This document shows positions 6,319 to 13,660 of a DNA stretch of 64,000 nucleotides, one piece after another. Both the position numbers and the translations under genes were made by a program. The stretch is from Saprospiraceae bacterium (GTDB taxonomy: Bacteria > Bacteroidota > Bacteroidia > Chitinophagales > Saprospiraceae). The DNA is taken from NCBI GenBank assembly GCA_026993525.1, contig JALWSS010000086.1, forward strand, positions 1 to 64,000. The letters run 5' to 3'. The notes beneath the pieces are model-generated. The model did no database searches, had not been told where the DNA came from, and saw only the letters and a list, made by a program, of their open reading frames with translations. Numbering within the stretch: the stretch's first letter is position 1; every line of letters starts with the position of its first letter.

Positions 6319-6930
6319 TTATTTCACCACCTCATAAATGGCTTTTGCTTCTTTGGAAGAAGGGTTGTATTGCAGGGCGTTCAAAATTGCTTCGCGGGCT
6401 TCTTTGATGTTTCCCAGTTCCAATTGGATCGCAGCCATCAGGTAATTGGAATCAAAATCAAAAGGATACAGCAACAATACCTTGCTGATATATACAAATG
6501 CAGTTTGGTTGTCTTTAAAAATATAGTGATGGATATATGACAACCGGTAATTGGCTTGTGCATGATTGGGGTCGATTTTTAAAATTTCCTTGTAAACATC
6601 CACAACGTCATTCCAATTGCCCAGGGCTGCAAGTGGGTAAACTATTCCCATTCGAGCTTCGATGGATTTTGGCCTCAATGCAATGGCCTTGTTGTAATAA
6701 GATTTGGATTTTATATAATCACCGCTGAGGTAATTCAGCCAGCCAAGACGGAGGTTTAAAGGGTAGGAATTTTCAGCATACACTTTTGTCATTTCTGCTA
6801 TTGCCTTTGAATATTCTTCATTGCTTTCATAAGTATAACTGTTCAGGAATGCCTCAATGGATTGGTCTTGGCAGAACACGATCGTTGTGGTTATCAAAAC
6901 AATCATTGACGACAAAATGGACTTTTTCAT
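6319..6930 (-). CDS. Tetratricopeptide repeat protein, secreted
   Basis: Signal peptide; TPR pattern (EARMGIVYPLAALGNWNDVVDVYKEILKIDPNHAQANYRLSYI). Confidence 0.75.
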   Translation of the reverse strand: MKKSILSSMIVLITTTIVFCQDQSIEAFLNSYTYESNEEYSKAIAEMTKVYAENSYPLNLRLGWLNYLSGDYIKSKSYYNKAIALRPKSIEARMGIVYPLAALGNWNDVVDVYKEILKIDPNHAQANYRLSYIHHYIFKDNQTAFVYISKVLLLYPFDFDSNYLMAAIQLELGNIKEAREAILNALQYNPSSKEAKAIYEVVK

Positions 6931-7128
6931 CTGCTAACTGATTTTATTGGATTCAATTTGGTTGGTGATCGAATTGCAGGCCATCAACTGAATTCAATGC
7001 GAAGGGTTTTGGCCCGTGTTTACCTTTGGTTCGCTGCTCGTCCCAGTGTGCTTGCTGCTCCCGGTTTTTCAAATCATAGCGAGCGACATCGGCCGAAACA
7101 GATTTGTGACTACAATTTCATGGTTGGA

Positions 7129-8499
7129 TTAAAATTGTATCCTAAAACCCGTGAATACAGCGAAGGCATCGTAACTTTCAAAAGTGAGCCCATCCCGGAT
7201 GTGCTCCTGCTGCAAGGTTACATACAACAAGCTTTGTCTGGATATATTGTACCGGCCTGTTAAACTGAAACGGTATGCCAACTTGTCGTAATTGTTTAAC
7301 ACGATGGAACCGCCAAACAGGGAGACCGGAAAATACCCCTTTTTTAAAAAATAGCCTTGAAGTGCGAATTTGTAACTGATGCCGGCACTGAAAAAAGGAA
7401 CGAGGACCCGGGTCATTTCCTGCTCCCTGACAAGCGTGAGGTATTCCAGGCCTGCTTCCAGGTACTTGTAGCGATTGAAAAAGAATGTCCAGGAGGCACT
7501 TGCGCCCAACTGGAGGTAATCAACCGTCGAGGTGGTGTTAATGTTGATTTGCCTTTGACCGGAACCGATGACATCAGAGGAGATTTGCTGTTGATTTTCT
7601 GTTACACTGGCAACAGTATCGGTTCTGATGGTTTGCGAATAATCTGGTTGGCTGTTCTCCAAATGCCAGGCAACATGAGGAGTAATGGAGAATCCATTGA
7701 TTCTTTTGGTCAGGTTTAGTCGTGCGTACAATGAATTCAATCGCAAGTTTCCATAAGTGCGTGTCTCGGTATGGATAGCGGTGTCATAACGGATGTTTTG
7801 TAATGAGTTGCTGCTGATTGGATTGCTGAATGAATTGATATAGTCAAAACTACGCGTGTAGCTGAAATAGTTTATTGTTGAGCTCATTCTCCACCCCTTT
7901 CTGAATAAATATTGTGGGGCCAGGAATAATTGATGTTGCTGGTATTTGCCCCAGAGCAACTCTTGTTGTATCCAGGTGTAACTGTGATAAAGGGATAATT
8001 TAGGTGAAAGTTGGAAGTTTATCCCAATATTTCCATAAAGCATTGTAGAAGCTACTTCCTTGCGGTTTGAAAATTTTGGTCCGCCCTCCAGGTATATGTA
8101 TTGTGCAATCCGCCTTTGCTGCTCAAGAATAGTTCTTTTTGAAGAATCCGGCATCAGCGAAATCATATCGTAGGCCTCAGGTGTTCGTCCGGTTGCCAGG
8201 TATATCCAATAGAGGTACTCAGCAGCAATACCGGTGCCCCTGTTTTGTTCCAGTGCCCTTTGGAGGTATTTTTCAGCAGTGTAGAATTTTCCCAATTCAT
8301 AGTTTGCAATCCCAAGCCTCATGTTGAGGTAGTAATAGTCAAATTGACCGGTAAGTGGTTTGCGCCCAAATTTGGCAAGTTGTTTCCATTTTTTTTGAGA
8401 GAATAAAGCATACGAGGTGCTGTCCACCAGCTTGAAATCTGACTGGCCAATGGCGTTTACACTGATAAATAAAAACAATATCAGGACAGAACGGTGCAT
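7129..8499 (-). CDS. TPR-containing outer-membrane beta-barrel-like protein
   Basis: Signal peptide (MHRSVLILFLFISVNAIGQ), TPR-like N-terminus, then alternating aromatic beta strands ending in F (GFRIQF*). Confidence 0.6.
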   Translation of the reverse strand: MHRSVLILFLFISVNAIGQSDFKLVDSTSYALFSQKKWKQLAKFGRKPLTGQFDYYYLNMRLGIANYELGKFYTAEKYLQRALEQNRGTGIAAEYLYWIYLATGRTPEAYDMISLMPDSSKRTILEQQRRIAQYIYLEGGPKFSNRKEVASTMLYGNIGINFQLSPKLSLYHSYTWIQQELLWGKYQQHQLFLAPQYLFRKGWRMSSTINYFSYTRSFDYINSFSNPISSNSLQNIRYDTAIHTETRTYGNLRLNSLYARLNLTKRINGFSITPHVAWHLENSQPDYSQTIRTDTVASVTENQQQISSDVIGSGQRQININTTSTVDYLQLGASASWTFFFNRYKYLEAGLEYLTLVREQEMTRVLVPFFSAGISYKFALQGYFLKKGYFPVSLFGGSIVLNNYDKLAYRFSLTGRYNISRQSLLYVTLQQEHIRDGLTFESYDAFAVFTGFRIQF

Positions 8500-12143: not shown

Positions 12144-13201
12144 AATTCTCCCAGTGTTGAAATAGATTCAAATTCTTCAAGGTTGACGATCATGTCGTTT
12201 GAATACCTGATAAACATTTTGCCCACCTCGTAATTATCAAATGGTTTGATGTCTTCTCCCATAGCAAGTTTGACAAGTGCTTCGACCTGGTTTTGGCCGG
12301 CCCCTACACTCAGGTAGCACCAGGCGGGAAATCTGGGGTTGATTTCCAGCAAGTAATATTCATCATTTTTGGTTTTCATAAACTCCAACTCAAAAGGTCC
12401 TCTCCATGAGGTGGATTCCACCAGGTTCTTGCATATTTCAAGTAGCTTTTCATCGGCCAGTGTAACACCTGACCAGGCTTTCCCCTTTTCGGTTACATAG
12501 AGTTTTTTCATCGGCACGGCACCGATGGTTTCACCCTTGCCGTTGCCGATGCCACAGACATTGACTTCGTGGCCTGAGATGAATTCCTGGATCAGCACCG
12601 GCGTACCCCATTGGGCGCTTATTTTTGAAAAATATTGCATGACTTGCTCCGGTGTGCTTGCAATTCTTGCATCGTAAAACTTACCTTTCACCACCACCGG
12701 ATAGCCAAGTTGGCTTGCCATATTGGTGGCCTCAATCATGGTATTGGCCATTCTGACGGCAGGCACTTTTATACCGTGTTTGAGCCCGAAAGCATACAGG
12801 TTGCTTTTGTGGCGTTCATTGAATTGTTTTTCCGAAGGCAAAAAGGTTTTTATGCCAAGGTCCTTTTCAAGTGTTTTTTGCAGCTTTATGTAGTTGAATA
12901 ATTCTGCATCAAAGTTCGGGACAAGCATGTTGGGCTTCTCAACGGAATGAATGTATTGCAGCCTTTTGAGCAACACATCCTGTCCGGCAGAGGGGTAAGG
13001 AACGAGGTAGCTCTTGTCAACCAGGTCGTGCATATACAATCCGGGTTCCATGCTCTCGTACGCCAGCCCGATGATGCGCACGTCAAAGCTTTCGGCATCT
13101 CTCAGCGCTTTGATCACTGCAAGGCCGGGCCCCGGGCTGTCAATGGCGTTCAGGCCGCTTACTCCTATGGTGTATCTGGGATTACTCATTCGTTGTATCA
13201 A
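12140..13201 (-). CDS. ATP-grasp domain protein
   Basis: YPVVVKGKFYDA, PVLIQEFISGHEVNV, FELEFM...YYLLEINPRFPAWCYLS (ATP-grasp metal/ATP motifs). An alternative start is MSNPRYTIG at 13189. Confidence 0.8.
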   Translation of the reverse strand: MIQRMSNPRYTIGVSGLNAIDSPGPGLAVIKALRDAESFDVRIIGLAYESMEPGLYMHDLVDKSYLVPYPSAGQDVLLKRLQYIHSVEKPNMLVPNFDAELFNYIKLQKTLEKDLGIKTFLPSEKQFNERHKSNLYAFGLKHGIKVPAVRMANTMIEATNMASQLGYPVVVKGKFYDARIASTPEQVMQYFSKISAQWGTPVLIQEFISGHEVNVCGIGNGKGETIGAVPMKKLYVTEKGKAWSGVTLADEKLLEICKNLVESTSWRGPFELEFMKTKNDEYYLLEINPRFPAWCYLSVGAGQNQVEALVKLAMGEDIKPFDNYEVGKMFIRYSNDMIVNLEEFESISTLGEL

Positions 13202-13433
13202 TTAGCTTGTATGATTCCAGAATTTTTTTAAAATCGTATAGGTCTTTTTCTGCAGTGGGTCTGTCAACCGAATATTTTTTCAAAATATGTTTGATGACCT
13301 CCTCCTCAGTAGCTCCATTTTTGATCAAATTGAAAATGAATTGCCCAATGGGATTGATGGAGTAGGAATCGCCGGTGGCAGCGTTGAAGACAAAACCCGA
13401 ATCGCTGACAGCGACATTGCTCTTGAGTTTCAT
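13182..13433 (-). CDS. PqqD-like protein (RiPP recognition element fold)
   Basis: MKLKSNVAVSDSGFVFNAATGDSYSINPIGQFIFNLIKNGATEEEVIKHILKKYSVDRPTAEKDLYDFKKILESYKLI matches the PqqD-family pattern. Confidence 0.75.
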   Translation of the reverse strand: MKLKSNVAVSDSGFVFNAATGDSYSINPIGQFIFNLIKNGATEEEVIKHILKKYSVDRPTAEKDLYDFKKILESYKLIDTTNE

Positions 13434-13660
13434 AAGGAAGAAGTTTTGATTTTTGTGCCTGTCCAAATGCTTTCAATCACGGCATTGCCTGTAGGTGTTG
13501 AAGTTGATCGTCTGTTTGATTTTTCCTGCCCGGGCGAAAGTGAACACATCTTGTCCGGATTTCCACCGATTGGATACGGGTAATCAGCGGAATAGTTTAC
13601 CGAAGGACAGAATATATTTGAACACTTATTTCCGGGAATATCACCCTTTAACAGACTCAA
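13430..13660 (-). CDS. Small 76-aa ORF coupled to PqqD start by ATGA overlap (doubtful; candidate precursor)
   Basis: The TGA stop overlaps the ATG of the preferred PqqD start (ATGA). No family recognised. Confidence 0.2.
   Translation of the reverse strand: MSLLKGDIPGNKCSNIFCPSVNYSADYPYPIGGNPDKMCSLSPGQEKSNRRSTSTPTGNAVIESIWTGTKIKTSSL

What the first reader, a model, noticed from the sequence alone, without database searches (positions are those of the whole stretch)
6319..13466. PqqD / ATP-grasp / PLP-decarboxylase / urea-transporter::M23 / OM-barrel operon: candidate undescribed peptide or amino-acid modification system
Six consecutive minus-strand genes, several overlapping (pqqD-like/ATP-grasp ~20 nt; ATP-grasp/decarboxylase 4-nt ATGA; UT-M23/barrel 19 nt). 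Established: PqqD-like folds are RiPP leader-binding elements, ATP-grasp enzymes make amide or peptide bonds, fold-III PLP enzymes decarboxylate or racemise amino acids, and M23 domains cut or bind peptidoglycan. No radical SAM enzyme, lasso B/C protein or PQQ gene is nearby. Inference: a peptide or amino-acid product is built in the cytoplasm, moved by the UT-like domain, and processed at or anchored to the envelope. The system seems to match no standard RiPP class.
Basis: partly seen in the sequence, partly recalled or inferred. Interest (0 to 1): 0.85.

Follow-up and report, generated by a model that had tools for sequence, protein, structure and literature searches.

The report
Conserved six-gene ligase–decarboxylase–channel operon
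Six neighbouring genes, found together as a fixed set in about one in eleven sampled genomes of the Bacteroidota group, look like an undescribed assembly line that builds a small decarboxylated amino-acid conjugate inside the cell and moves it through the cell envelope; its product is still unknown.

Summary
A PqqD-like protein, an ATP-grasp ligase, a PLP decarboxylase, a urea-channel::M23 fusion, a TPR outer-membrane barrel and a TPR protein lie in that order on the minus strand, at or very near the stated coordinates. It is far beyond chance: ligase, decarboxylase and channel::M23 occur in exactly the same 36 of 399 sampled phylum genomes, and the order holds in 108 of 110 loci. The decarboxylase is not lysA, which the genome carries elsewhere. 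It is nearest to N-citrylornithine decarboxylase (FigC/FslC) but has an invariant, different pocket, so its substrate is probably a side-chain conjugate made by the ligase. The RiPP reading is unproven: no conserved precursor lies nearby, although this is the genome's only PqqD protein. The channel keeps the urea-transporter fold but not the Glu of the filter, and the genome has no urease. Upstream regulators are often of metal or envelope-stress type. No family model or open-access paper found names the system. Product and direction of transport are inferred, not shown.

The parts
13182..13433 (-). PqqD-like protein, 83 aa (ORF extends to TTG 13466); predicted peptide- or carrier-binding adaptor of the ligase
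   Evidence: PF05402 44.4 bits; closest solved relatives are lasso-peptide RRE proteins TbiB1 and TfuB1; adjacent to the ligase in 107 loci, median gap -4 nt; the genome's only PF05402 protein
12140..13189 (-). ATP-grasp ligase, 349 aa (ORF to TTG 13201), PRK12767/carbamoyl-phosphate-synthase-like
   Evidence: PF15632/PF02655; PRK12767-type models far below cut-off; K172, E212, E271, E273, E286, N288, R290 (numbered from TTG 13201) invariant in 108
10782..12143 (-). AR-fold (fold III) PLP decarboxylase, 453 aa, FigC/FslC-like but with its own substrate pocket
   Evidence: Best solved match 7kh2 N-citrylornithine decarboxylase E 1e-57; FslC 233 bits vs cut-off 500, lysA 213 vs 298; K84, W348, C373, M374, I376, D377, Q406 invariant in 106
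8481..10697 (-). UT-family channel fused to M23/LytM-type metallopeptidase domain plus C-terminal beta-rich region, 738 aa (ORF to TTG 10778)
   Evidence: PF03253 181 bits and PF01551 59 bits; model pLDDT 92.4; Foldseek to urea transporters TMt 0.76-0.86 and DipM LytM 0.67; H410, D419, H494, H527, H529 invariant in 94 (numbered from TTG 10778)
7129..8499 (-). Outer-membrane beta-barrel with N-terminal TPR domain, 456 aa
   Evidence: AlphaFold pLDDT 94.7, helical TPR 22-128 then about 15 strands; Foldseek finds many OM barrels at low TM-score, among them BcsC, AlgE and PelB; present in 80 of 110 loci
6319..6930 (-). Exported TPR protein, 203 aa
   Evidence: TPR_2 E 2e-15; N-terminal signal-like segment visible in the sequence; in 91 of 110 loci

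Best explanation
The operon is a dedicated biosynthesis-and-transport module. In the cytoplasm the ATP-grasp ligase, held to its substrate or carrier by the PqqD-like protein, uses ATP to attach an amino acid through its side chain to a partner molecule. The FigC-like PLP enzyme then removes the free alpha-carboxyl group of that conjugate, leaving an amine, the same two-step logic as FigA/FigC (rhizoferrin) or BtrJ/BtrK (butirosin). The M23-type zinc domain on the cytoplasmic end of the UT-type channel releases or trims the product, and the channel passes a small neutral piece across the inner membrane; the TPR protein and TPR barrel carry it across the outer membrane. Expression is switched by metal- or envelope-stress-type regulators, so a metal-handling or envelope-protective metabolite is the likeliest kind of product. 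Shown: the conserved set, the domains, the conserved catalytic residues, that the decarboxylase is not lysA. Inferred: substrate, order of reactions, M23 role and side, outward direction, metal link.
For: Same 36 of 399 genomes hold ATP-grasp, decarboxylase and full-length UT-M23; order kept in 108 of 110 loci with coupled ORFs. Decarboxylase: catalytic Lys and Cys kept; position 374 is Met as in FigC M355, where DAPDC/ODC have an acid; the specificity helix lacks the ODC/ADC Asp and the DAPDC Arg; FigC's T327 and Y331 kept, T330 to Trp (106/106), citrate contacts H357, R387, N389 changed to I, Q, M (FigC residues from PMC7857480). That implies a large, neutral pocket for one constant, non-citryl conjugate. 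ATP-grasp catalytic residues invariant. M23 catalytic residues invariant in 94. UT keeps the fold. Regulators: HMA-like/AraC upstream in 40 loci (HMA E 4e-4 in one); ECF sigma/anti-sigma/Metal_resist in seven; CusA- or CusB-like genes within the fetched flanks in about 11 loci (CusB-type domain seen in one scanned member).
Against: No substrate or product was observed. The PqqD fold normally implies a peptide, and none is encoded nearby. A UT-type pore should be too narrow for the conjugate itself. Secreted soluble relatives of the M23 domain exist, so it may be periplasmic. The window's own copy has no metal-type regulator beside it, and about half of the relatives lack one; the metal link was not compared with a background rate. 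The barrel could import rather than export.
Confidence: 0.4

Rival explanations
1. It is a new RiPP-type or scaffold-peptide pathway: PqqD binds a leader or scaffold peptide encoded elsewhere in the genome, the ATP-grasp adds or crosslinks a residue, the PLP enzyme decarboxylates it, and the cytoplasmic M23 domain is the peptidase that frees a small product, which leaves through the UT pore.
For: PqqD closest in the PDB to lasso RREs; ATP-grasp next to PqqD; all M23 catalytic residues kept; UT C-terminus predicted cytoplasmic, so the peptidase would face the biosynthetic enzymes; a small cut-out product would fit a UT pore.
Against: No conserved small ORF within 1.5 kb upstream, 1.2 kb downstream or in the operon; AR-fold decarboxylases need a free alpha-amino acid end; no radical SAM, YcaO or lasso enzyme in the set.
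Confidence: 0.25
2. It is an import and use system: the TPR barrel takes up an amide- or urea-like nutrient or cell-wall fragment, M23 and UT process and pass it, and the cytoplasmic enzymes convert it.
For: UT channels are passive and bidirectional; M23 domains normally cut peptidoglycan; a DAP-linked stem peptide also presents a free amino-acid end to a DAPDC-like enzyme (own knowledge); M23 catalytic residues kept.
Against: No urease in the genome; no TonB-type receptor or solute-binding protein in the set; an ATP-using ligase suggests synthesis; the UT filter has lost Glu.
Confidence: 0.15
3. It is an envelope-modification system: the decarboxylated amino acid conjugate is attached to a cell-surface polymer, with the TPR barrel as polymer channel as in BcsC, PelB or PgaA and M23 acting on peptidoglycan in the periplasm.
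For: TPR plus barrel architecture; soluble M23 relatives are secreted; LytTR and ECF-type envelope-stress regulators upstream.
Against: No glycosyltransferase, polymerase or polysaccharide gene in the set; UT C-terminus predicted cytoplasmic.
Confidence: 0.15

Closest known systems
Rhizoferrin FigA/FigC (FslA/FslC; N-citrylornithine decarboxylase, PDB 7kh2)
   Same: An ATP-dependent ligase plus an AR-fold PLP decarboxylase; best structural-sequence match; C-M loop and T/Y of the specificity helix kept
   Different: No NIS synthetase in the genome; the ligase is ATP-grasp; FigC citrate-binding residues replaced; no MFS exporter in the set
Butirosin BtrJ/BtrK (ATP-grasp glutamyl-ACP ligase and decarboxylase; roles from own knowledge)
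   Same: ATP-grasp ligase paired with an AR-fold decarboxylase acting on a carrier-linked amino acid
   Different: No acyl carrier protein; a PqqD-like protein instead; BtrK only a remote match (7ru7/2j66, E about 1e-21)
Lasso-peptide RRE proteins (TbiB1, TfuB1) and PqqD
   Same: Same fold family, discrete small protein next to its enzyme
   Different: No precursor, B2 protease or cyclase; all lasso/PqqD equivalog models far below cut-off
Urea transporters (dvUT, UT-B)
   Same: Fold, pore Gln, first-half and second-half pore motifs
   Different: Filter Glu187 position is Ala in 74 of 94; Thr of the middle site is mostly Ser; fused to M23; TIGR03441 113 bits vs cut-off 275; no urease
M23/LytM peptidases (DipM, LytM, lysostaphin) and secreted Bacteroidota M23 proteins
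   Same: Domain fold and complete catalytic set H, D, H, HxH
   Different: Attached to the predicted cytoplasmic end of a channel; variant H-x8-D spacing
TPR-barrel exporters (BcsC, PelB, PgaA)
   Same: TPR plus outer-membrane barrel layout
   Different: Low TM-scores (about 0.3), no polymer synthase in the set

Membership tests
RiPP biosynthetic cluster | Discrete RRE/PqqD-like protein | tested here: met
   PF05402 44.4 bits, over cut-off; peptide binding itself not tested
RiPP biosynthetic cluster | Precursor peptide gene in or beside the cluster | tested here: not met
   No conserved 18-110 aa ORF family near the operon other than pieces of regulators and neighbouring genes
RiPP biosynthetic cluster | Class-defining modifying enzyme shown to act on a peptide | not testable with these tools
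   ATP-grasp present but its substrate is unknown
Rhizoferrin pathway (FigA/FigC) | NIS (IucA/IucC) synthetase | tested here: not met
   PF04183 absent from the genome
Rhizoferrin pathway (FigA/FigC) | FigC citrate-contact residues (H357, R387, N389) | tested here: not met
   I, Q and M/L in the family
Diaminopimelate decarboxylase (LysA) | TIGR01048 cut-off and DAP-binding residues | tested here: not met
   213 bits vs 297.9; the acid after the catalytic Cys is Met; a separate LysA exists
BtrJ/BtrK type carrier-linked decarboxylation | Carrier protein charged by the ATP-grasp enzyme | tested here: inconclusive
   No ACP in the set; PqqD-like protein could play the part, but its C-terminus is not conserved
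Urea transporter | UT fold and selectivity-filter residues | tested here: inconclusive
   Fold met; Gln kept, Glu187 position lost
Urea transporter | Link to urease | tested here: not met
   No urease alpha in the genome
M23 peptidoglycan peptidase | Zn ligands and catalytic His | tested here: met
   H410, D419, H494, H527, H529 in 94 of 94
M23 peptidoglycan peptidase | Location in the periplasm | tested here: inconclusive
   Positive-inside pattern and UT topology give a cytoplasmic end; soluble relatives have signal peptides
Known anti-phage defence system | Match to PADLOC models | tested here: not met
   No hit for any of the six

The most novel reading that the evidence does not exclude
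A categorically new pathway in which a scaffold-bound amino acid is ligated, decarboxylated and then cut free by a cytoplasmic M23 peptidase built onto the mouth of a urea-type channel, which passes the freed small molecule directly out of the cell, perhaps as a metal-binding or envelope-protective metabolite.
Probability: 0.2. Interest if true: 0.9.

Novelty: new variant of a known kind. Interest (0 to 1): 0.66.

Why it matters
About 9% of sampled genomes of the phylum (GTDB Bacteroidota, Chlorobia included) carry this fixed gene set, so it must do something useful, yet no curated family model or open-access paper found here names it. It would be a new use of the ligase-plus-decarboxylase logic, of a PqqD-like protein outside known RiPP classes, and of a urea-channel::M23 fusion with no described function. 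Named organisms carrying at least the decarboxylase (Chloroherpeton thalassium, with the neighbouring genes; Labilibacter marinus; Saccharicrinis) make it testable.

Tried and rejected
Decarboxylase as housekeeping lysA: rejected (separate LysA). Rhizoferrin-type siderophore: rejected (no NIS synthetase; pocket changed). Urea uptake for urease: rejected (no urease). Chance neighbours: rejected. Degenerate M23: suspected at first by eye, rejected on the family alignment. Known defence system: no PADLOC hit. Nearby precursor peptide: none found. Plasmid carriage: one remote Streptomyces ATP-grasp (26%) in an unrelated context. Barrel fold search: many OM barrels, none specific. Flank Pfam scans: variable neighbours, only regulators recur. 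Literature searches for the gene combination found no description.
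Full report
WHAT IS THERE. Six minus-strand genes lie at 13433-6319: pqqD-like, ATP-grasp, PLP decarboxylase, UT::M23, TPR barrel, TPR protein. Start sites were adjusted from relatives: the ATP-grasp family is 349 aa and starts at ATG 13189, giving an 8-nt ATGAGTAA overlap with pqqD; pqqD starts at ATG 13433; UT-M23 most likely at ATG 10697. 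Pfam and NCBIfam place each protein in its superfamily, but none reaches an equivalog cut-off in NCBIfam.

IS IT MORE THAN CHANCE. Yes. In a sample of 399 genomes of the phylum (GTDB Bacteroidota), ATP-grasp orthologues occur in 36 (plus one 29%-identity outlier, G431, that lacks the rest), the decarboxylase in 36 and a full-length UT-M23 in 36 (two adjacent ORFs in one of them), and these are the same 36 genomes. In 110 loci (80 from GTDB species contigs; 29 fetched from the sample and relatives; and the window) the genes are on one strand in all, in the same order in 108, with median gaps of -4, 21, 9, -13 and -4 nt; 77 loci hold all six, many others being cut by contig ends. Some loci are duplicates of one genome (for example L057 and L130). 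In one lineage group the barrel is a separate 269-309 aa protein after the TPR gene (cluster 23).

DISTRIBUTION. The set is patchy: no orthologue was found in 13 same-genus genomes or in most same-family genomes, with one divergent copy in the family (G096). The nearest relatives are Flavobacteriales and Chitinophagales MAGs at 64-71% identity. The operon is 44% G+C against 51% for window 14000-64000, but 1-6000 is also 43%; lateral transfer is likely, not proven. One carrier is Chloroherpeton thalassium ATCC 35110 (identified through the decarboxylase and contig length); Labilibacter marinus and Saccharicrinis carry close decarboxylases (their neighbourhoods were not inspected). UT-M23 fusions also appear under Calditrichaeota and Alphaproteobacteria MAG names (context not inspected).

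DECARBOXYLASE. The genome has a separate LysA (377 bits, cut-off 297.9), so the operon enzyme is not lysA. Its best solved relative is N-citrylornithine decarboxylase (7kh2, E 1e-57). Mapping with the pairwise alignment and the published FigC analysis (PMC7857480): catalytic Lys and Cys are kept; Met follows Cys as in FigC, where ODC, ADC and DAPDC carry an acid for the side-chain amine; the specificity helix has no ODC Asp or DAPDC Arg, keeps FigC T327 and Y331 and has Trp at T330; the FigC citrate contacts are changed to Ile, Gln and Met. Trp348, Ile376 and Gln406 are invariant in 106 sequences, so the whole family very likely shares one substrate that is neither a basic free amino acid, nor DAP, nor a citryl amide. 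Because AR-fold decarboxylases need a free alpha-amino and carboxyl group (established chemistry), the natural inference is an amino acid conjugated through its side chain, and the ATP-grasp enzyme is the obvious ligase. Its ATP-grasp residues are invariant.

PQQD. It is the only PF05402 protein in the genome and sits directly before the ligase in the loci examined (overlapping or within 60 nt in 97% of 107). Solved relatives are lasso RREs. A search of the flanks and gaps for conserved small ORFs found only fragments of regulators and neighbours, so a precursor, if any, is encoded elsewhere.

UT::M23. The AlphaFold model is confident (pLDDT 92.4) and matches urea transporters (TMt up to 0.86) and LytM domains. 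Of the dvUT filter (residues from PMC4357013, and own knowledge for the pore Gln) the pore Gln is kept in 86 of 94 and the middle-site Thr residues are mostly Ser, while the Glu187 position is Ala in 74 of 94. With no urease in the genome, urea is an unlikely cargo. All M23 catalytic residues are invariant. Conserved K/R lie on the side of the N- and C-termini and acidic residues on the other; the loop between the halves is on the outer side in UT proteins. This predicts a cytoplasmic M23 domain. In Chloroherpeton the UT and M23 parts are two overlapping ORFs and the M23 ORF has no signal peptide, which fits but could be a frameshift. Against it, soluble relatives of the domain (35-42% identical) have signal peptides, and two Cys are nearly invariant. 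The side therefore stays open.

ENVELOPE PARTS. The barrel model (pLDDT 94.7) has a TPR helical part and about 15 strands; Foldseek returns many OM barrels at low TM-score. Direction of transport is not shown.

REGULATION. Upstream of pqqD, on the same strand, 40 loci have an AraC regulator with an HMA-like N-terminal part (HMA E 4e-4 in one member, weaker or no hit in others; usually only the second Cys of CxxC is kept); others have LytTR/histidine-kinase pairs or ECF sigma/anti-sigma/Metal_resist sets. CusA- or CusB-like genes lie within the flanks of about 11 loci. This points to metal or envelope stress, but no background rate was computed and the window's own copy has none of these regulators beside it.

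VERDICT. A real, widespread and apparently undescribed functional module. The most likely reading is a small-conjugate biosynthesis and transport system (0.4), with a peptide-scaffold version next (0.25). Its enzyme logic is known; the assembly with PqqD, UT::M23 and a TPR barrel is not. Literature was searched only in an open-access library without preprints and most subscription papers, so an existing description cannot be excluded.

Noticed in passing
window 1238-4809 (-): Two adjacent genes, a Rieske domain fused to a TPP enzyme and a Rieske domain fused to a glutamate-synthase-type FMN domain, form an unusual pair just downstream of the operon.
   Followed up: no
window 14033-15982 (-): A 649-aa protein with a weak glutamate-cysteine-ligase-like N-terminal match and two CBS domains, upstream of the operon; not a conserved neighbour.
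   Followed up: partly
window 5108-6154 (-): A GH26-like exported protein with no NCBIfam match directly downstream of the TPR gene; not conserved beside other copies.
   Followed up: no
window 13467-14032: A non-coding stretch of about 570-600 nt upstream of pqqD, longer than the 58-290 nt seen after the regulator in most relatives; a promoter-like site at 13788-13759 is within chance numbers.
   Followed up: partly
L137 12943-15197 (Chloroherpeton thalassium): UT and M23 parts lie in two overlapping reading frames in a complete genome: a natural split, a frameshift mutation or a programmed frameshift.
   Followed up: partly
L164, L166, L168, L169, L170: Stand-alone or membrane-anchored M23 proteins 35-42% identical to the fused domain, most with a signal-like N-terminus, occur in other genomes of the phylum.
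   Followed up: partly
L086 and L122: Two loci with the TPR gene moved upstream and a CHASE3 histidine kinase inserted before pqqD, with a LytTR regulator after the barrel.
   Followed up: no
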